Translations under genes and position numbers: made by a program
The notes under the pieces: model-generated
Databases searched by the model: none
What the model saw: only the letters and a program-made list of their open reading frames with translations
What the model was told of the DNA's origin: nothing
Source: a bacterium
GTDB taxonomy: Bacteria; CAIWAD01
Direction of reading: 5' to 3'
Assembly (NCBI GenBank): GCA_030429345.1
Contig: JAUIFJ010000065.1
Span: 1-7,150 of the forward strand
Length of the DNA stretch: 7,150 nucleotides
Part shown: piece after piece, positions 1 to 7,016 of the stretch
Layout of the letters: each line of letters opens with the position of its first letter
How positions within the stretch are numbered: position 1 is the first letter of the stretch

Positions 1-153
1 CGGGACCTGGGCCCGGATCCAGTCAAGGGATTGGCGCTTGTTCCCGATGTACTGCACGCCATGAATGGGAGGCCCCTTGGCCTCGGCACACAGTTCGGGA
101 AACAGGGCGGCTTCCACGGTCAGAAAAGGCATCACCGTCTCGCACAAAAGCAT
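1..153 (-). CDS. Probable D12-class DNA adenine methyltransferase, N-terminal part (partial)
   Basis: Fifty-one codons run from ATG 153-151 off the left edge of the window. The fragment starts MLLCETVMPFLTVEAALFPE and contains GVQYIGNKRQSLDWIRAQVP at its end. The Y-I-G-N-K-R-x-x-L-x-x-I pattern matches motif I of MethyltransfD12 (Dam-type) enzymes, where the Gly/Asn/Lys segment helps bind S-adenosylmethionine. These enzymes methylate adenine N6 in DNA. The catalytic DPPY motif would lie outside the window. A second in-frame ATG at 132-130 would drop seven residues, and neither has a clear ribosome-binding site. Phages often carry such orphan methyltransferases to evade host restriction. The assignment rests on one motif, so it is probable and not certain. 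Confidence 0.6.
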   Translation of the reverse strand, partial: MLLCETVMPFLTVEAALFPELCAEAKGPPIHGVQYIGNKRQSLDWIRAQVP

Positions 154-230: not shown

Positions 231-539
231 CTAGCGGACGGCTTTTTGCATCCGGTCCAGGAATTTCTGCAGGTCGTCTACGGTTTCAGTTTGGATCTCC
301 GTGGCCGAGCGGTAGTAGCCAACATTTCGCTGCCAGTACTCCAGGAAGCCTTCGGCCACCGTGTCCTGGTTCTCTTCGATCATGCGGTCGATCACGCGAG
401 AGGCGGTCAGCTCATCCGAGAAATAGTAGTCGGGATGGAAGACATAGTGGAAGGCGTCGTCCTGGTCGACGATCCAGGCGCCGATGGGGGCTTCCCGGCC
501 AGACTCGATGTCGTGCACGAAGAAGTAGCGGACGGTCAT
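231..539 (-). CDS. Hypothetical small acidic, aromatic-rich protein
   Basis: This 102-residue protein starts at ATG 539-537, overlapping the previous stop as ATGA. GAGAGG lies at 553-548, 8 bases upstream. The frame stays open upstream of this ATG, but the extra 37 codons lie inside the preceding gene and read as low-complexity G/A/R/P, so I excluded them. The product begins MTVRYFFVHDIESG and contains IGAWIVDQDDAFHYVFHPDY. It is strongly acidic (about 20 D/E against 10 K/R) and about 16% aromatic, with a predicted beta N-terminal half and helices at about 44-70 and 85-102. There is no signal peptide or membrane helix. I cannot assign a family. Size, charge and position resemble immunity or anti-toxin-like proteins, but a small phage accessory protein is equally consistent. 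Confidence 0.82.
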   Translation of the reverse strand: MTVRYFFVHDIESGREAPIGAWIVDQDDAFHYVFHPDYYFSDELTASRVIDRMIEENQDTVAEGFLEYWQRNVGYYRSATEIQTETVDDLQKFLDRMQKAVR

Positions 540-1039
540 TGGTTGTGCCTCTCGTGCCACTCCCAGTCCTTCAGTTGTTGGACTGCCAGTTCGTCGAGCC
601 GCTGGTCCAGCTTGTCCTGCCCGCCGAAGCGCGCGAGCTCCTGGTCCCATGCGGTGTAGGCGGCTTCTTGCCGCTCATCGAATGAATGAGGATCATTTCG
701 CGATAACAGGAAGGCCATCGCTCCATCTGTCGCGCGCAGAAAACAGGAATGGCCTTTCTGTTCAGTGACTTCGCACTCGAAGACATGAATCGGATTGCCT
801 GCATTTACCAGGTCGATCACGCCTTGATCCACGAACATCAGCAAATAGCGGAACTTCTGAATGCTGCCATCGCCGCGATCGTAGATCGGTGTTGCACGGA
901 GCACACGAACGCCGCCCATGTAGCTGACAAGAAATGGTGATCCATCCAGAAAATTCACTCCAAGCGAGAGTCCGAACTCCCCGAAAAGCGAATCCATGTA
1001 TTTCTGGAACACATCACGTGCTTCTATCGCTGCACTCAA
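536..1039 (-). CDS. Hypothetical acidic protein, candidate immunity or accessory protein
   Basis: I do not recognise this 167-residue protein. The first TTG was chosen because it overlaps the stop of the large gene (TTGA, stop at 1038-1036). A weak GGTGG sits 4 bases upstream. GTG at residue 10 and ATG at residue 15 (position 997) are alternative starts without clear ribosome-binding sites. The protein has no signal peptide or membrane segment. Hand counts give about 26 acidic and 16 Lys/Arg residues, so it is net acidic. The N-terminal two thirds look alpha/beta (FLVSYMGGVRVLRATPIYDR, then FRYLLMFVDQGVIDLV). The last 45 residues are charged helix ending in a W-E-W-H-E-R tail. GC over 721-1020 is about 51%, well below the large genes upstream. 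Coupling directly after an ART-like terminus suggests an immunity or regulatory role, which is inference from context only. Confidence 0.8.
   Translation of the reverse strand: MSAAIEARDVFQKYMDSLFGEFGLSLGVNFLDGSPFLVSYMGGVRVLRATPIYDRGDGSIQKFRYLLMFVDQGVIDLVNAGNPIHVFECEVTEQKGHSCFLRATDGAMAFLLSRNDPHSFDERQEAAYTAWDQELARFGGQDKLDQRLDELAVQQLKDWEWHERHNQ
548..553 (-). promoter_or_regulatory. Shine-Dalgarno site for the 102-residue gene
   Basis: The minus strand reads GAGAGG at 553-548, with 8 bases to the ATG at 539. It supports the overlapping ATGA start over the longer open frame. Confidence 0.7.
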
Positions 1040-1578
1040 TTGGCCACCACGATTACGTCTTCTATGGTCCTACCGTCTGGTAGGACTGTGATACCATTCT
1101 TGCGGAAGGTCTTCAAGAGTCGATCACGTTTCAGGGGGCTGCGCACACCAATGGAATCCAGGTTGTCCAGGATGGTGACCGGCCCCTTGAAGTCCGTTTC
1201 GTTGCTCGAGGACCTCGCGTTGGCCTTGAAGCCCGCCAGGTCACTGCGCCGGTTGTCCCTGACCGTCGTCCCTGTCACACGACCGAACAGGTCGCGCGGA
1301 TAGCTGATCGCGTCCGCGCGCTTCAGCATGTCGATCTTGAATCGGATCTGATCCCCGCCCAGACTTCTGCGCGATTTGATGCGCGTGAAGAAGTAGCTGG
1401 CGCCGCCGGTGTTCATGTCGGAACCGGGACTCATCCCCCCGATCGGCACACCGGCGGTGAAGCGGTCGGCCGTGGGAACGAAGGCCCGGTTCGTCGGCAG
1501 CACAACTTCGAAAAACTCCTCGATATCCCCCTTCGTGATCTCGTGGACCAGCACATGCCCCTTCATCGATTTCTGAAA
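1036..1578 (-). other. C-terminal ADP-ribosyltransferase-like module (candidate effector)
   Basis: Residues about 1290-1469. The segment shows an ART-like order of elements: a strand with His (HVLVHEITKG, His1301); a Gly/Ser-rich turn into an aromatic strand (GGMSPGSDMNTGGASYFFTR, 1336-1355); a further strand with an R-x-D pattern (FKIDMLKRADAISYPRDLFG); and a late Glu before a strand (SSNETDFKGPVTILDNLDSI, Glu1416). The His...Tyr/Phe...Glu order is what PARP/diphtheria-type or related ARTs have, and NE-x-x-F-K-G resembles their catalytic-Glu strand. No alignment could be run, so this is a fold-level inference. An alternative is an unrelated toxin or a structural domain. Its position at the extreme C-terminus, next to small acidic genes, matches where polymorphic toxins keep their toxic domain. 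Confidence 0.45.
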
Positions 1579-4500
1579 GGTCTTGTCGTCCAAGTCGAAG
1601 CGCTCCTGTACACGGATCCCGCCCTGGCTGCCGGCACCGCGCACCGTGGAATACTGGTAGTGGCCCTGGGGCTTGTATGCCGGGAGCTTGGTCACATCTT
1701 GCACGCCCAGCTGGGAGGACCAGGCCTCGCGCCACACGGCGACCGCAGCCTCCGTGGAGTCGGCCTCCGCGGCCCGGGCCGCCGCCTGCTGGAATAGCGG
1801 CGTCTGATCGATGTTGGCGGCGTAGGCTGTCTTCTGCAGATACATCAGCTCTTCCTGGGCGGCCGTCGAAGGTGTGGTGTCCAGCCCCAGTTTCTGCAGC
1901 TTCTGCAGGGCCTGCGCCACCCGGGCCTCGCTGACCTCGCCGGCTGCGCGCACGGTCATTCGCCCCTGGACCGCGAACAGGTGCTGCTGAGTCAGGCTGC
2001 GGTAGGGGCGGTAGACTACCTGGATGCCATCGCCCAGGTCGACCTCGAACTCTGCTGCCTGATCGGCCAGCCGGTGATCGAACTCACTCAGCGGCACGTT
2101 GTCCTTCTCCAGCACCAGGCGGTCGCCCTTGGCGCGCGTGCGGTCCGCTGTCACACGATCGCGCACAGTCACCGTGTACTCCGGATCCGAAGCCACCGGC
2201 TTGCTGAGGGTTTTCAGGTCCTTGGGATCCGCCTGGAATTGCTTCAGGATCGGCAGCGGATCCGGTGTCTTGCCCGCTCTGGCCGCCGCGACCTTCTGCT
2301 GGATCTGCTCCATGGCGTCCAGGTACTGCGTCGCCATTTTCCTTTCAACCACGTTTCCCGACTTCGCAAGCTTTTGAAGTTCCGGGGCGTGAGACATCAT
2401 TCCCATCAGAGTCTGGTCATTGAACCCAAGGTCCGAGAGATGATGGTTCACTGTCTTGGCGGCGTTCAGGATGGAATGCCAGTAGTTGTCCGTATACACT
2501 TCGGATGGCAGGTGCCCTGCTTGCTGCTTCAGCAGCTGGGTCAGTCGCTGGTCCGCCTCGGGGCGCAGCCGCAACTCCATCATCGTGCGCTTTCCGCCCC
2601 CGGGCAGCAGGACCTCGCGCACCAGGACATTCTGATCCTCGATCTGATCCGAATCGATGCCCAGGGACTTTCCCTGCCAGCCGTTGTCCCGGATCTCCTT
2701 GACCTCGTGTGACAGATCGAAGCGAGCGTCGCGCCCCCAGGTGAGCTCTGGAGCATCCGGTGGCGCGGCAGGAGCTGGTGCCACGGGTCCCTTCTCTCCG
2801 AACCGGAAGGCCACTTTCTTTCCCGTGCGCGCGGATTCCACCTCGCTGTACAAGCGCTCAAAGTCCTCGCGCAGCGTCTGCTTGCGCTTCACCGCCCCGT
2901 TCAAGAAGTCGGCCAGGGCTCCAGGCTGGCCGGCGAACCGGCGCTCCGCGTAGGGCCTGAGCATCTCCTTGTACGCACTGTCCGTGATGGCCTGGGCGCG
3001 CCGGATGAATTCTTCCGTGGCACGTAGATCCAGCTGGATCTTCCCGTCCCGGTGCAGGCGCAGCAGCTGGTTGTACACCGGCTCGCCCGCATTGTGGATC
3101 CGGTTGGGGTAGTAGGTCAGATTCAGCTTGTCCTTGCCGAAGAACTTGAACAGCTGCCCCTTGTCGATGCCGTATACCTTCCCGTCCTGCGCGCGCAAAA
3201 ACTGGTTCACATGGCTGTCGTGGTTGGAGATCAGCCAGTCGATGACATGCTCGCGCTGCAGCTGCAGCAAATCCTCGGCCTTCAGGGTGTCCAGCCCCAG
3301 GCTGCCGTAGTCGCTGACTTCCTTCAGCCCGGTCTTCATTCGCTGGATTGAGCCGGCCAGCCGGCGGCCCTTCACCTCCAAGCGGATGAACCGAGCCTCC
3401 ACGGCGTTGGGGTCGATCTCCCGCTGGATCCGGTAGGCCACCTCATCGCCCCAGGCACGGAACTCCTCGGCAATCGGCTTGAACAGCCAGCGGTCGCCAC
3501 TGGCATCACGGAAGAAGTACTTGGAGTGCGCACCGCCCAGGCTGCGGGCGTCGCCGTCGAAGACGAAGGTGCTGCCGTCTTTGAGTGCCTCCCACTCCTG
3601 ATCCGCCTGGTTGGCCAGCTGGATCACCGGGGCCTTGGGTTCCGGCGGCACGGGCTTCGGTTTCGCGGCTTTCTTCGCCGCGTTCTTCGCCTTCACCGCC
3701 TTCAGCTTCTGGGCCACCTGGGCGATCAGCTCCGGCCGCTTCTCCGGGTTCAGGATGTAGGACAGGGTCTCTTCTTTCGTGTACCACTGGAAGTTCTTGA
3801 CCCCGTGTGCCTTCAGGAGATCACGCAGCTGCTTCTGCTTCATGCCCTTCAGTGCGGCGAGGAAGCCATCGTAGGCCTTGGCGATCTGGGCCTTGAACGG
3901 CTTGAGGGCCTCGATGCCCAGCACTTTCTGCGCGTTTTCCAGGACGGCCCCCACTTCGTAGGCAGCCGCGTAATACGCATCGAAAGTCTCGGGCTTCGCG
4001 GTCTCTACAAGCTTCCCCACCTTGGAGTACAGGGCCTCGGTGGCTTCCTGCTTGGCCTTCGCTTCTTCGGCTGCCTTTTGGGCAGCGATCTTCGCTTTCT
4101 CCGCCGCCTCCTTCGCTGCCTTCTCCGCCTGCTTCAGCGCCGCCAGCTTGGCCGCATGCTTCTCCGTCCCCTCGCCCAAAAGGTCTTTCACCAGGTCCTC
4201 GCGGGACTTGATCGGGCTGACCTTGTGCTGTTTCAGCAGCTTTTTGAACTCCGCGGTACTCAGGCTTTGCAGGTATGATACATCGATCCCGGCAACATCC
4301 GAGAGCAGCTGCGTCTGGTAGGCCTTGGAGCGGGAGATCGGAATCCCCTTCTGCTTGGCCAGCTCGCGTAGCTGCCGGACTGTCAGGGCGGAAAAGTCGC
4401 CAGTCTTCAGCGCCTGCTTCACCGCCTGCTGGCCCAGCGTGTGCTTCGTCACCAGGTCCTGGATGGCCGGCAGGTCCTTGATCTGATCCAGGGAACCAGG

Positions 4501-5445
4501 CGCAGGGACATGGGTGCAGCGGCAGGCGGGGTGAAGTGGCTGGGGCGGGAACTTCTCGATCGCGTACTCGCGGCCGTCCAGGGGCTCGCATTCGGGGCAC
4601 AGGCGCTCGTCCCCCGCGGTCAACCAGGTCAGGCGGGTGACCCCGATCTGCTGCTCGAACTTCCGCGCCCCCTGGTTGTAGGCGCGCATGGTCTCCGAGC
4701 GGGCGATCAGCTCCGCCCGCTGCTGAACGCTTCGAAAGACAGTCTTGCCGGCTTTCTTGAACTCCGCGGGGTCGGTGACGATGCCACCGATCTGGCGGGC
4801 GATGCGCGCCGGGCCCTGCCCCTGCAGGATGCCCGCAGAGATCGCGGCCTTGGTGCCGGCCACCAGGTCGTCGGAGAGCTTGCCCAGCAGCTGCAGCTGG
4901 TAGCCGGTCAGGAAGTCGAAGGCCTGGTCACTGACCACACTGAAAGCCCCGGCTGCCAGGTCCTGCTTGTCGACCACCGGAAGGTCCTTGTAGCCCGGGA
5001 GCTTGAGCGCCCCCAGCTTGGAAAGCACGCCCTCGATGCCCGCAGTCGCAGCTTCCTGTGTGACACCCTTGTAGACCAGCTGCAGGTCTTTCTTCAGCCG
5101 CGCGCCCGTCTGCTGGATGGATTTCTCCAGCGCCTTCAGCCGCGCGAGCTCCACCTGCTTACCCGGCAGCCGGTCCCCCGTGAACTGGGAAAGGTCGCCC
5201 AGCTTGAGGACCTCGACGTGGATGGCCTTGGCCGCCTGATCCAGCTGCTTCATCGACTGGGCCAGCAGCTGGTCCGTCATCTTCCCCACATGGGCAAGAG
5301 ACTGGGCGGTCGCCTCCTCGATCAGCTCCCTTTGCGAGGGGCTGAAGGCGGCCCAGGCGCGGGAGCCTTGAACCAACAGCAGGCCCTCGGAGACCAAGGC
5401 CTGCAGAGTAGGCTGGTCCAGCCCCGTGTGCCAGGGCAGGCTCAC
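1036..5445 (-). CDS. Giant MuF minor head protein fused to SAP/Rho-N repeats, kinase-like and ART-like domains
   Basis: The product is 1469 residues, several times the length of an ordinary MuF head protein. Domains in order: helical N-terminus (1-190); MuF head-morphogenesis domain (about 190-315) with its Cys/His cluster; three SAP/Rho-N-like repeats (351-384, 391-424, 531-566) around a Lys/Ala-rich coil (425-470); a K/A/P hinge (583-605); a HipA/PI-kinase-like domain (about 620-880); a Pro/Ala linker (886-899); two unassigned regions (900-1118 and 1120-1250); and a C-terminal ART-like module (about 1290-1469). No signal peptide or membrane segment is visible. The start is GTG, overlapping the portal stop as GTGA. 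There is no clear Shine-Dalgarno site and the next Met is residue 56, so translation is probably coupled to the portal. The frame is open throughout. MuF proteins act inside the procapsid at the portal, so the appended domains are inferred to be virion-borne or to form a polymorphic toxin. The MuF call is firm, the kinase likely and the ART tentative. Confidence 0.93.
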   Translation of the reverse strand: MSLPWHTGLDQPTLQALVSEGLLLVQGSRAWAAFSPSQRELIEEATAQSLAHVGKMTDQLLAQSMKQLDQAAKAIHVEVLKLGDLSQFTGDRLPGKQVELARLKALEKSIQQTGARLKKDLQLVYKGVTQEAATAGIEGVLSKLGALKLPGYKDLPVVDKQDLAAGAFSVVSDQAFDFLTGYQLQLLGKLSDDLVAGTKAAISAGILQGQGPARIARQIGGIVTDPAEFKKAGKTVFRSVQQRAELIARSETMRAYNQGARKFEQQIGVTRLTWLTAGDERLCPECEPLDGREYAIEKFPPQPLHPACRCTHVPAPGSLDQIKDLPAIQDLVTKHTLGQQAVKQALKTGDFSALTVRQLRELAKQKGIPISRSKAYQTQLLSDVAGIDVSYLQSLSTAEFKKLLKQHKVSPIKSREDLVKDLLGEGTEKHAAKLAALKQAEKAAKEAAEKAKIAAQKAAEEAKAKQEATEALYSKVGKLVETAKPETFDAYYAAAYEVGAVLENAQKVLGIEALKPFKAQIAKAYDGFLAALKGMKQKQLRDLLKAHGVKNFQWYTKEETLSYILNPEKRPELIAQVAQKLKAVKAKNAAKKAAKPKPVPPEPKAPVIQLANQADQEWEALKDGSTFVFDGDARSLGGAHSKYFFRDASGDRWLFKPIAEEFRAWGDEVAYRIQREIDPNAVEARFIRLEVKGRRLAGSIQRMKTGLKEVSDYGSLGLDTLKAEDLLQLQREHVIDWLISNHDSHVNQFLRAQDGKVYGIDKGQLFKFFGKDKLNLTYYPNRIHNAGEPVYNQLLRLHRDGKIQLDLRATEEFIRRAQAITDSAYKEMLRPYAERRFAGQPGALADFLNGAVKRKQTLREDFERLYSEVESARTGKKVAFRFGEKGPVAPAPAAPPDAPELTWGRDARFDLSHEVKEIRDNGWQGKSLGIDSDQIEDQNVLVREVLLPGGGKRTMMELRLRPEADQRLTQLLKQQAGHLPSEVYTDNYWHSILNAAKTVNHHLSDLGFNDQTLMGMMSHAPELQKLAKSGNVVERKMATQYLDAMEQIQQKVAAARAGKTPDPLPILKQFQADPKDLKTLSKPVASDPEYTVTVRDRVTADRTRAKGDRLVLEKDNVPLSEFDHRLADQAAEFEVDLGDGIQVVYRPYRSLTQQHLFAVQGRMTVRAAGEVSEARVAQALQKLQKLGLDTTPSTAAQEELMYLQKTAYAANIDQTPLFQQAAARAAEADSTEAAVAVWREAWSSQLGVQDVTKLPAYKPQGHYQYSTVRGAGSQGGIRVQERFDLDDKTFQKSMKGHVLVHEITKGDIEEFFEVVLPTNRAFVPTADRFTAGVPIGGMSPGSDMNTGGASYFFTRIKSRRSLGGDQIRFKIDMLKRADAISYPRDLFGRVTGTTVRDNRRSDLAGFKANARSSSNETDFKGPVTILDNLDSIGVRSPLKRDRLLKTFRKNGITVLPDGRTIEDVIVVAN
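1067..1086 (-). other. Perfect 8-bp hairpin near the 3' end of the large gene
   Basis: The minus strand reads GTCCTACC-AGAC-GGTAGGAC, an 8-bp perfect stem with a 4-base loop, within the codons for the VLPDGRTIED segment. It lies 28 bases upstream of the TTG of the next gene. No T-tract follows it, so it does not look like an intrinsic terminator. It might slow ribosomes or shape coupling to the next gene, or it may be chance. Confidence 0.45.
2806..3588 (-). other. HipA / PI-kinase-like domain within the large protein
   Basis: Residues about 620-880. A Gly-rich entry (RSLGGAHSKYFF, 635-645) is followed by a lysine in a strand (DRWLFKP, Lys656), which is the expected ATP-binding Lys. The region around 692-703 (GRRLAGSIQRMK) fits the inter-lobe segment. 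The catalytic loop HVIDWLISNHDSHVNQFL (733-750) carries the N-x-D-x-H-x-x-N signature typical of HipA-type and phosphatidylinositol-kinase-like folds (Asn741, Asp743, His745 or neighbours, Asn747). It is followed by VYGIDKGQLFKFF with Asp761, the expected Mg-binding Asp. All key positions appear intact, so an active enzyme is likely. The substrate is unknown and could be protein, nucleotide or another small molecule. Confidence 0.72.
3748..4395 (-). repeat. Three SAP/Rho-N-like repeats around a Lys/Ala-rich coil (protein-level repeat)
   Basis: Residues 351-384 (FSALTVRQLRELAKQKGIPI and the following SRSKAYQTQLLSDV), 391-424 (YLQSLSTAEFKKLLKQHKVS, then PIKSREDLVKDLLG) and 531-566 (ALKGMKQKQLRDLLKAHGVK, then a WYTKEETLSYIL segment) share the pattern L-x(5)-L-x-x-L-x-K-x-x-x-V/I followed by a K/R-rich turn and a second helix. 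This is the shape of SAP or Rho N-terminal helix-extended-helix modules, which usually bind nucleic acid. Between the second and third lies a roughly 45-residue helix made almost only of K, A, E and Q (about 429-470). A role in touching packaged DNA is inferred. The repeats have diverged at DNA level. Confidence 0.6.
4501..4875 (-). other. MuF (phage Mu gpF-like) head morphogenesis domain
   Basis: Residues about 190-315 of the large protein. The diagnostic run starts with the RAELIARSETMRAYNQGARK helix at 243-262. It continues through TRLTWLTAGDERLCPECEPL (270-289) and DGREY, and closes with PLHPACRCTHVP at 303-314. Cys283, Cys286, His305, Cys308 and Cys310 form the conserved Cys/His cluster, which could bind a metal. 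In Mu, SPP1 and related phages this family sits inside the procapsid next to the portal and is needed for head assembly or DNA ejection. All the hallmark residues are intact. Confidence 0.93.
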
Positions 5446-7016
5446 GCGGCCTGGTCGTCGAGCGTGGCCAGCAGCTTGTCCACCCGGGCGCGGGCACTCT
5501 CTTCCAGCTGCCGGTTCACCGCGTGATACAGGCCACTGGGATCACCGGTCATGCTTGCCCCGGCTTCGGGATCTTCCTTCCCGGGCTCCTTGCCCTGAAA
5601 GCCCTGAAGCCGCTCGGCCAGGTTCAGCAGGAAGGCCACCTGCTCATTGGTCAGCATGCCCTGCTGGGCCAGGCCCACGATGTCGCCGGGCGTCAAGGGT
5701 GCCGCCACCTGCCGGGTCTCGGACTTCATCTGCGCCGTTTCGACAGCCGGATTCAGCCCGATCATCGTCTGCAGGGTGTTGACCGAAATGAGACCCCTGT
5801 CGTACATCTCCACCAGCACCTTGCGAGTGTCCGACGTGGCGGACAAATCGATGCCGGGGAAGACGATCTGGACATCCGCGTCACGCTTGCCCTTCATCTC
5901 CAGGTAGTCGTCAATGACCCAGGCCAGCATTTCGTGTGCCATGTCGCGCAGGTCGGCCAGCATCAGCTGGATCTTGGCGAAACCCATGCTGGCGGTTGAG
6001 AAGTTGGACCCGTCGCCGGACACGAGTGCCCGGGTGAAGCCCATGGCGACGATGATGTCGGTCTTGGCTTCCTTGATCTTCTCTTCCGTCTTCAGCGCCT
6101 CGCCCTCGGCGCCGTAGGTCTTGACCTCCACGTAGAAGGGGACCACCGCCCCCTGCTTGGGGTCCATGTTGTCGAAGGTCTTCTTCACGTCGTTCATCTG
6201 CGCCTGGGTCGGCATCACGACCTGGCGGCCGAACTGCCCACCCACCTGGATCAGGCGGATCGGCGTGGCCCAGCGCTTGGCGATCGCGCGGTCCGCGCGC
6301 CGGTAGTCGCGCAGAAGCTCGATCGACTCGAAGGCCGGCAGGATCATCGAAGTCCCGTGCTCGGCGAAGTCCGGGGCATCCCAGATCCAACGCCGGAACT
6401 GCAGCAGGGGAATTGGCTTGCCCTCCGTGGGCTCTCCGCCCTCGATCTCGGTGATCAGCGGCAGGACTTGGACCAGCGCACCGTCCTTCACCGTGGGCTT
6501 CAGGTCCGCGGGGTTGAGCACCTTCACGCGCGCGAAGTCCGTATACGTGGGCCTGCCATCCTCGTTCTTGCCGGTGGGCGCGCCGCCGTACTCCTTGAAA
6601 GCCGCGGCCTCCCCCTTGGTCAGCAGCTGCAGCAGCTGATCCTTCAGCCACCTTTTGAGCCCCAGCCGCCGCTTCAGCTCCAGCAGCTCTTTCTTCAGTT
6701 GGGGATCCGAGCACAGGATGGTGAAGTCCTCGCCCAGGGCCAGGGTGCGCCAGGCGTTGATGCAGTTGTTGACGATGGGCTCTTCCTGGTAGTACTTCCA
6801 GGCCCGCTTCGCCCGGTCGCGCCAGTCCTTGGGCACGCCTTCCGTGGTCAGCAGGCTACCGAAGGGATCGATGGTCGCGGCGCTCGAGTTCAGCGGCGGG
6901 GCATCGATCACAGAATCGGCTTCCAGCTCCTGGCCGGCAGGCACAGCCGCGTGTGCTACGCCCTCGCTCTTCATCGCCGGCAGCTGACCCCAGGGCCACA
7001 GGTCACGAATGTGCAT
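5442..7016 (-). CDS. Phage portal protein
   Basis: The 524-residue product reads as a tailed-phage portal, the dodecameric ring at the capsid vertex through which DNA is packaged and ejected. It has the expected length. Visible portal features are the helical N-terminal segment after a disordered leader (residues 64-100, RAKRAWKYYQEEPIVNNCIN and a following GEDFTI), the central stem-like helix (about 221-260, GTSMILPAFESIELLRDYRR, then RADRAIAKRWATP), and the late segment 321-350 (MGFTRALVSGDGSNFSTASM). The clip/crown stretch at 400-422 (DRGLISVNTLQTMIGLNP) is typical of the G-x-I-S-x-x-T portal pattern. The C-terminus (about 455-524) is charged and helical. ATG was chosen because AGGAGG lies 4 bases upstream. 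The stop TGA overlaps the next gene's GTG (GTGA). Portal followed by a MuF-domain protein is the order seen in SPP1 (gp6-gp7) and Mu (gp29-gp30). The family call is firm; the subfamily is not determined. Confidence 0.92.
   Translation of the reverse strand: MHIRDLWPWGQLPAMKSEGVAHAAVPAGQELEADSVIDAPPLNSSAATIDPFGSLLTTEGVPKDWRDRAKRAWKYYQEEPIVNNCINAWRTLALGEDFTILCSDPQLKKELLELKRRLGLKRWLKDQLLQLLTKGEAAAFKEYGGAPTGKNEDGRPTYTDFARVKVLNPADLKPTVKDGALVQVLPLITEIEGGEPTEGKPIPLLQFRRWIWDAPDFAEHGTSMILPAFESIELLRDYRRADRAIAKRWATPIRLIQVGGQFGRQVVMPTQAQMNDVKKTFDNMDPKQGAVVPFYVEVKTYGAEGEALKTEEKIKEAKTDIIVAMGFTRALVSGDGSNFSTASMGFAKIQLMLADLRDMAHEMLAWVIDDYLEMKGKRDADVQIVFPGIDLSATSDTRKVLVEMYDRGLISVNTLQTMIGLNPAVETAQMKSETRQVAAPLTPGDIVGLAQQGMLTNEQVAFLLNLAERLQGFQGKEPGKEDPEAGASMTGDPSGLYHAVNRQLEESARARVDKLLATLDDQAA

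What the first reader, a model, noticed from the sequence alone, without database searches (positions are those of the whole stretch)
1036..5445. MuF head protein carrying a kinase-like and an ART-like domain in one 1469-residue chain
Seen: an intact MuF signature at residues 243-314, a complete HipA/PI-kinase-like active site at 635-761 and an ART-like terminus at 1290-1469, all in one frame and joined by K/A/P and P/A linkers. Known: MuF proteins sit at the portal inside the procapsid; T4 packages the ADP-ribosyltransferase Alt in its head; MuF domains also head some polymorphic toxins. Inference: this phage may build two host-modifying enzymes into a minor head protein and deliver them at infection, or the prophage may use the chain as a toxin. 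I do not know of a characterised protein with this exact order.
Basis: partly seen in the sequence, partly recalled or inferred. Interest (0 to 1): 0.82.

Follow-up and report, generated by a model that had tools for sequence, protein, structure and literature searches.

The report
Phage head protein carrying two enzymes
A temperate phage fuses two enzyme-like domains, a kinase and an ADP-ribosyltransferase, to a protein of its head, and the same pair recurs in phages and in plasmid-like mobile elements of many bacterial phyla, so it probably alters the host cell when DNA enters.

Summary
One intact minus-strand ORF (1036-5445, 1469 aa, directly after a portal gene) carries a MuF domain (PF04233 E 5e-12, residues 201-311), a kinase fold (AF2 pLDDT 90; best Z 15.4, PI4KII-alpha; also Fam20, CtkA) and a C-terminal ART fold (best Z 9.4; the top seven matches are all DarT). 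Active-site residues are conserved: K656, D743 and D761 in the kinase, H1301/Y1351/E1416 in the ART. All domains are under purifying selection (dN/dS 0.007-0.12 between prophage copies). The architecture is not private to this phage. It recurs at dozens of viral and prophage loci from several phyla, and mycobacterial prophages (McProf gp54) have the same order with an unrelated ART class. In Firmicutes and streptomycetes the kinase and ART are adjacent genes with a common leader peptide, near a Replic_Relax or ADP-ribosylglycohydrolase gene. Of 98 distinct uncut kinase ORFs, 91 are paired with an ART. Two small conserved genes (A, B) follow in about 95% of loci. Best reading: a head-borne two-enzyme effector that enters with phage DNA and modifies host targets. 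Packaging, delivery, catalysis and targets are untested. It is a new variant of the MuF-effector/polyvalent-protein kind.

The parts
5442..7016 (-). portal protein gene, 524 aa; its TGA overlaps the next start codon (GTGA)
   Evidence: phrog_2739 portal E 1.6e-29; junction read
1036..5445 (-). the 1469-aa MuF-kinase-ART chain
   Evidence: ORF; three copies in the genome; dN/dS 0.056 against copy C62
4501..4845 (-). MuF domain, residues 201-315
   Evidence: PF04233 E 4.8e-12, TIGR01641 E 2.3e-13
4186..4398 (-). SAP/Ish1-like modules, residues 350-420
   Evidence: PF02037 E 5e-5, just under its cut-off, two stretches; PF10281 E 0.0035; SAP and Rho_N hits in relatives
2824..3612 (-). kinase fold, residues 612-874; K656, D743-x-H745-xx-Q748, D761
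   Evidence: AF2 pLDDT 90.4; Z 15.4 PI4KII-alpha, 13.4 Fam20A, 13.2 CtkA; conservation
1606..2745 (-). middle region 901-1280, conserved (GWQGKxL...DIEDQN), function unknown
   Evidence: alignment A2; HMM hits in dozens of relatives
1039..1572 (-). ART fold, residues 1292-1469; H1301, Y1351, E1416
   Evidence: AF2 pLDDT 86 for 901-1469; DarT Z 9.4, the top seven rows all DarT; H in 76 of 76, Y in 70 of 76, E in 69 of 76 homologues
536..1039 (-). small gene A, 167 aa, TTGA overlap with the chain's stop; candidate immunity protein or chaperone of the ART
   Evidence: present after the ART gene in 70 of 73 loci; junction; no family or PDB hit
231..539 (-). small gene B, 102 aa, ATGA overlap with A's stop; second candidate partner
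   Evidence: present in 69 of 73 loci; no convincing family hit
1..153 (-). start of a DNA methyltransferase gene that runs off the window
   Evidence: same N-terminus (FLTVEAALFPEL...) as the orthologue in G001, which hits phrog_27806 E 2e-142

Best explanation
The chain is a minor head protein of a temperate tailed phage whose C-terminal two thirds is a two-enzyme effector. The MuF part holds it at the portal inside the head. On DNA ejection the chain, or its C-terminal part, enters the new host with the genome; there the PI4KII/Fam20/HipA-like kinase phosphorylates one target and the DarT/PARP-like ART transfers ADP-ribose from NAD+ to the same or another target (protein or nucleic acid unknown), favouring establishment of the element. 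The translationally coupled small genes A and B most likely protect the producing cell from the ART or keep it inactive until packaging. Shown: architecture, both folds (by prediction), conserved active-site residues, purifying selection, portal-effector-A-B gene order, and recurrence of the kinase+ART pair with and without MuF. Inferred: packaging, delivery, catalysis, targets, role of A and B.
For: Folds. Conserved active sites: K656 in 104 of 105 and D743 in 102 of 105 ungapped homologues, D761 in all 105; H1301 in 76 of 76, E1416 in 69 of 74. Selection: ART dN/dS 0.007-0.026, kinase 0.049-0.093 between prophage copies. Phage context: portal upstream; terminase, tape measure and integrase beside the copies in G001. 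Pairing: of 98 distinct uncut kinase ORFs, 70 have the ART in the same chain, 14 in another ORF of the locus, and 7 carry the unrelated ART PF03496 in the same chain. In a subclade MuF is a separate upstream gene and kinase+ART form one protein. In Firmicutes and streptomycetes kinase and ART are two genes, with a shared leader in several of the pairs compared; Replic_Relax lies upstream in two actinobacteria, and an ADP-ribosylglycohydrolase lies on the same contig within about 5 kb in the Firmicutes. A and B follow in 70 and 69 of 73 loci. Precedent: Bxa, a MuF-ART protein with demonstrated antibacterial ART activity and two neutralising neighbours (PMC11699363).
Against: No virion proteomics, no enzyme assay. 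Most phage forms have Gln at the metal-binding Asn position of the kinase (Q748; Asn in 22 of 105), so activity is not certain. Five rows of the split set have Gln for the ART glutamate. Profile-profile comparison with DarT sequences found nothing, so the ART assignment rests on the predicted fold plus motif. Conservation of the C-terminus in nearly all relatives would also fit a structural or assembly role.
Confidence: 0.6

Rival explanations
1. Polymorphic MuF toxin: the chain serves bacterial competition. Lysogens release particles that deliver a growth-stopping ART (and kinase) to non-immune cells; A and B are immunity proteins that protect kin.
For: Small genes follow most MuF toxin genes (PMC5576092) and A/B follow here in about 95% of loci; Bxa and Apk2 work as toxins with two immunity proteins; A follows the ART even where the kinase is absent (Pan1, E 1e-5) and where the ART is a separate gene (L182, E 1e-6).
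Against: The C-terminus is not polymorphic: kinase, middle and ART stay together at dozens of loci across phyla instead of being swapped as cassettes. The three prophages of this genome keep nearly the same ART but diverge in A (78-82% identity, dS about 1). The pair also sits in non-phage mobile elements.
Confidence: 0.22
2. The enzymes act in the producing cell or in the virion, modifying head, portal or terminase components or protecting packaged DNA, rather than as injected effectors.
For: Gene sits between portal and a DNA methyltransferase; the MuF-kinase-ART chain is conserved as a unit.
Against: Kinase and ART occur as a pair without any MuF in loci with Replic_Relax, VirB4-like AAA_10 and FtsK genes rather than head genes, and several phages lack the kinase (Pan1) or encode MuF separately.
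Confidence: 0.1
3. The kinase and ART folds are degenerate and serve only as structural extension of the head protein.
For: The kinase has Gln instead of Asn at 748 in most phage forms; no HMM hit above curated cut-offs for either domain.
Against: K656, D743, D761, H1301 and E1416 are nearly invariant over large divergence, and the ART has the lowest dN/dS of the chain.
Confidence: 0.05

Closest known systems
McProf gp54 and related mycobacterial prophage 'minor capsid and ADP-ribosyltransferase fusion' proteins
   Same: Same order: head domain (VG15/MuF-type), homologous kinase domain (34% identity), C-terminal ART; gene directly after portal
   Different: ART is PF03496 (a different ART class); kinase is not annotated there; the middle region and A/B are not recognisable
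Bxa of Bacteroides stercoris (MuF-ART toxin, PMC11699363)
   Same: MuF head domain fused to an ART in a prophage, followed by small genes
   Different: No kinase is described in the passages read; ART activity and two immunity proteins are demonstrated there; A and B here match no known family
Polyvalent proteins of phages and conjugative elements (PMC5512222)
   Same: Several predicted host-modifying domains in one DNA-borne element protein; ARTs and a kinase family among them; both phages and conjugative elements use them
   Different: The kinase described there is said to lack the C-terminal subdomain, whereas the model here has a helical C-lobe; no Kinase-PolyVal hit was seen; MuF-kinase-ART trios were not found described in the passages read
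DarT DNA ADP-ribosyltransferases (DarTG)
   Same: Closest solved fold to the C-terminal domain (Z 9.4); H...Y.F...E order
   Different: No detectable sequence relationship; no equivalent of the conserved Arg51/52 found by sequence; no QxE motif; no DarG/NADAR partner seen in the window
PHROG 6577 (unknown function, 1066 positions)
   Same: Covers MuF to the middle region of the relatives (L063 E 3e-219; window residues 98-562 E 9e-50)
   Different: No function assigned; the family was defined without naming the kinase or ART

Membership tests
MuF-domain head proteins | MuF domain over curated cut-off | tested here: met
   PF04233 47.1 bits (cut-off 29.6), TIGR01641 50.5 bits (cut-off 39.65)
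MuF-domain head proteins | gene next to portal/terminase | tested here: met
   portal directly upstream with a 4-base overlap; terminase beyond it in G001
MuF-domain head proteins | present in the virion | not testable with these tools
   needs mass spectrometry
PI4KII/Fam20/HipA-like atypical kinase fold | overall fold | tested here: met
   Z 15.4 over 233 residues to PI4KII-alpha; Fam20A, CtkA, Fam20C 12.8-13.4
PI4KII/Fam20/HipA-like atypical kinase fold | ATP lysine, catalytic Asp, metal Asn, second metal Asp | tested here: inconclusive
   K656, D743, D761 conserved; Asn position is Gln in most phage forms and Asn in the split forms and some others. Residue equivalence inferred from motif spacing, not from a superposition
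HipA_C (PF07804) | score over gathering cut-off | tested here: not met
   best member E 1.3e-4; window domain 19.0 bits, cut-off 30.5
ADP-ribosyltransferase superfamily (H-Y-E / ARTD type) | ART fold | tested here: met
   top seven PDB matches DarT, Z 7.9-9.4; other ART-fold rows SopF 6.3 and Tpt1 5.6. Predicted model; one-domain signal in a 569-residue model
ADP-ribosyltransferase superfamily (H-Y-E / ARTD type) | H-Y-E residues | tested here: met
   H1301 76/76, Y1351 70/76, E1416 69/74 ungapped
DarT (PF14487) | sequence family membership | tested here: not met
   no DarT hit in the Pfam scans, none in G000; HHalign probability under 3%
DarT (PF14487) | Arg51/52 and Q-x-E | tested here: not met
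   no invariant Arg between H1301 and Y1351; residue two before E1416 is Ser or Asp; features taken from PMC11281641 and PMC11543638
DarTG toxin-antitoxin | adjacent macrodomain or NADAR antitoxin | tested here: inconclusive
   window genes A and B have no such domain, but the flank beyond the contig end was not read
ADPrib_exo_Tox (PF03496) | score over cut-off | tested here: not met
   no hit for the window chain; hits in the mycobacterial/actinophage relatives
MuF polymorphic toxin | small gene directly downstream | tested here: met
   A and B
MuF polymorphic toxin | toxicity neutralised by that gene | not testable with these tools
   needs co-expression
Polyvalent-protein kinase | loss of the C-terminal subdomain | tested here: not met
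   the model has five C-lobe helices after residue 780; feature from PMC5512222

The most novel reading that the evidence does not exclude
A kinase and an ADP-ribosyltransferase form a conserved two-enzyme invasion kit that travels with incoming DNA in unrelated vehicles: fused to MuF in phage heads, as twin leader-tagged proteins in plasmid-like or conjugative elements, and with two different ART classes. The two modifications act together, for instance one enzyme licensing or targeting the other, and may hit nucleic acid as DarT does.
Probability: 0.3. Interest if true: 0.88.

Novelty: new variant of a known kind. Interest (0 to 1): 0.7.

Why it matters
Head-borne enzymes are known from T4 Alt, Bxa and predicted polyvalent proteins, but a kinase persistently paired with an ADP-ribosyltransferase, at dozens of loci over several phyla and in two kinds of mobile element, is not described in the papers read. 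If the pair is delivered, it names two host modifications at the moment of DNA entry and gives a family (PHROG 6577, unknown function) a testable activity. Prophages in cultured hosts (Ectothiorhodospira shaposhnikovii, Desulfosarcina, Desulfobulbus) make it accessible.

Tried and rejected
T4 Alt-like or PF03496 ART for the window: no hit; the actinophage relatives have that class instead. DarT by sequence: HHalign of ART alignment A3 against 16 and 12 DarT proteins gave probability 0.2-3%, and KptA as a control 0.15%; kept as a fold resemblance only. Profile searches of solved structures with kinase, C-terminal, A and B alignments: nothing. Programmed frameshift between split MuF and kinase-ART ORFs: one of 13 overlaps (L036) holds two slippery-type heptamers, far upstream of the MuF stop, and most starts fit stop-start coupling; rejected. 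Scan of genome contigs with the whole chain found nothing; the kinase alignment found 44 loci. ART-only scan of viral contigs found none, which reflects the patterns chosen. DarT scan of viral contigs failed. PADLOC scan failed on a wrong reference and was not repeated. C-terminal model against viral structures gave no significant hit. ADP-ribosylglycohydrolase plus phosphatase fusion near the streptomycete pair: the two neighbourhoods read are syntenic overall, so this is weak evidence. No structure library row is taken as absence of a fold.
Full report
What is there. The finding is one intact ORF on the minus strand, 5445 (GTG) to 1036, 1469 aa. Upstream is a portal gene (phrog_2739, E 1.6e-29), downstream two small genes A (536-1039) and B (231-539). 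The junctions are four-base stop-start overlaps: GTGA, TTGA and ATGA, so the four genes look translationally coupled. A DNA methyltransferase start follows at 153-1. The contig is the window itself; the genome holds two more copies of the gene at 96% protein identity, one split over two contigs. A second genome of the same family has three copies at 52-55%, two of them beside terminase, tape measure and integrase genes. These are temperate phages or prophages.

Domains. MuF is over the curated cut-offs. SAP-like modules at 350-420 fall just below theirs. For the kinase, I aligned 35 relatives (A1) and predicted the window domain: pLDDT 90.4, pTM 0.88. VIA-align puts PI4KII-alpha first (Z 15.4, 233 residues, 3.8 A), then Fam20A, the H. 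pylori kinase CtkA and Fam20C (12.8-13.4), then PI 3-kinases (about 11). For residues 901-1469, 26 relatives (A2) gave a model with pLDDT 86, pTM 0.79. Its last 177 residues match DarT structures, which fill the first seven rows (Z 7.9-9.4); other ART-fold proteins (SopF 6.3, Tpt1 5.6) appear lower among unrelated helical rows of 4.5-6.7. Foldseek alone is weak (E 0.2, probability 0.93). I take the ART fold as likely, helped by the motif: H1301 is invariant in 76 distinct homologues, Y1351 is kept in 70 and E1416 in 69. The middle region 901-1280 is conserved and unidentified.

Selection. Between the window and copy C62, dN/dS is 0.056 for the whole chain, 0.049 for the kinase and 0.024 for the ART; against copy C86 the ART has one non-synonymous against 39 synonymous changes. 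dS is about 0.3, so these are separate prophages, not a recent duplication. Gene A has dS near 1 in the same comparisons: it evolves faster or recombines.

Relatives. A scan of viral contigs with the kinase region found 65 loci, and a scan of reference genomes 44. The C-terminal module follows the kinase in 58 clustered viral and own-family proteins. Named hosts of the full chain include Ectothiorhodospira, Desulfosarcina, Desulfatitalea, Desulfobulbus, Desulfofustis and Desulforhopalus, with metagenome-assembled Armatimonadetes, Acidobacteriota, Hydrogenedentota, Chloroflexi and Pontiellaceae; taxonomy of metagenome bins is only as good as the bins. In one subclade MuF is its own gene, and the kinase-ART gene starts at or near its stop, mostly in the -1 frame, without slippery sites that would suggest frameshifting.

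Modular variants. Seven actinobacterial phage proteins keep a homologous kinase (about 27-41% identity) but carry PF03496, a different ART class; six have a recognised MuF or VG15 head domain. McProf gp54 is one; its deposited name mentions the capsid and ART parts only. In five Firmicutes and six actinobacterial loci the kinase and the middle+ART parts are two proteins. In three of the six pairs compared, both proteins begin with the same 30-37 residue leader (BLAST E 3e-4 to 1e-6). Two actinobacterial loci have Replic_Relax genes upstream, and one Firmicutes contig has VirB4-like AAA_10 and FtsK genes; I read these as plasmid-like or conjugative elements, which is an inference. In the Firmicutes genomes an ADP-ribosylglycohydrolase lies on the same contig within a few kilobases, as expected if an ADP-ribosylating enzyme works there. 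In all, 91 of 98 distinct uncut kinase ORFs are paired with an ART: 70 in chain, 14 in another ORF of the locus (four of these rows are broken or IS-split genes), 7 with PF03496. The remaining seven are truncated or interrupted loci, one unresolved, and three TPR-linked cellular-looking proteins.

Partners. A and B follow the ART gene in 70 and 69 of 73 loci. A remains after the ART where the kinase is absent (Pan1) and where the ART is a separate gene (L182), so A belongs with the ART. No family or structure matches were found.

Interpretation. Established knowledge: MuF proteins sit at the portal (SPP1 gp7), T4 packages the ART Alt, and the MuF-ART protein Bxa is an antibacterial ART neutralised by two neighbouring genes. 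With the data above the likeliest mechanism is a head-borne two-enzyme effector, with A and B as safeguards (confidence 0.6). A competition toxin (0.22) differs mainly in purpose and predicts cassette swapping, which is not seen here. Assembly function (0.1) and loss of activity (0.05) are less likely. Kinase Gln748, where kinases of this kind have Asn, is the main caution on activity; the split forms have Asn.

Membership. The protein is a MuF head protein by sequence and context. The ART has the fold and triad of the H-Y-E class but is not a DarT: sequence membership fails, the DarT arginine and QxE motif are absent. The kinase is not a HipA by cut-off.

Limits. The literature search covers open-access papers only, so absence of a description is not proof of novelty. 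Nothing was assayed.

Noticed in passing
L182-L192, neighbourhoods L195-L204 and L206-L207: Split kinase and ART genes in Firmicutes and streptomycetes, several pairs with a shared leader (MGGGxKKK or MGSGGKTTHxTYxTAPTA); what exports or carries them is unknown.
   Followed up: partly
L201:9209-10813 (and G392:C1:266638-268233): An ADP-ribosylglycohydrolase fused to a dual-specificity phosphatase domain (seen in L201) lies about 6 kb from the streptomycete kinase+ART pair, a possible eraser of both modifications, but the neighbourhoods are syntenic overall.
   Followed up: partly
window 536-1039: Gene A has dS near 1 between prophage copies while its neighbours have about 0.3, suggesting recombination or fast evolution.
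   Followed up: no
L175 (4825-6100) and L089 (4658-6258): Transposase-like ORFs interrupt the ART (L175, Rhodopirellula bin) and the kinase (L089); intact copies exist elsewhere.
   Followed up: no
L097, L098, L104 (G119, G383): Kinase domains, some in tandem, in large proteins with TPR repeats and no ART or MuF found.
   Followed up: no
L008, L091: Phage chains with further domains: NUDIX between MuF and kinase (L008), ART-PolyVal plus PF03496 with MuF (L091).
   Followed up: no
L205:3558-9647 (Phrappuccino gp195): 2030-aa protein with the kinase at its N-terminus, no recognised ART, beside a virion structural gene.
   Followed up: partly
window 1-153; L028:8927-11515: A DNA methyltransferase (phrog_27806) follows A and B in this phage group.
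   Followed up: no
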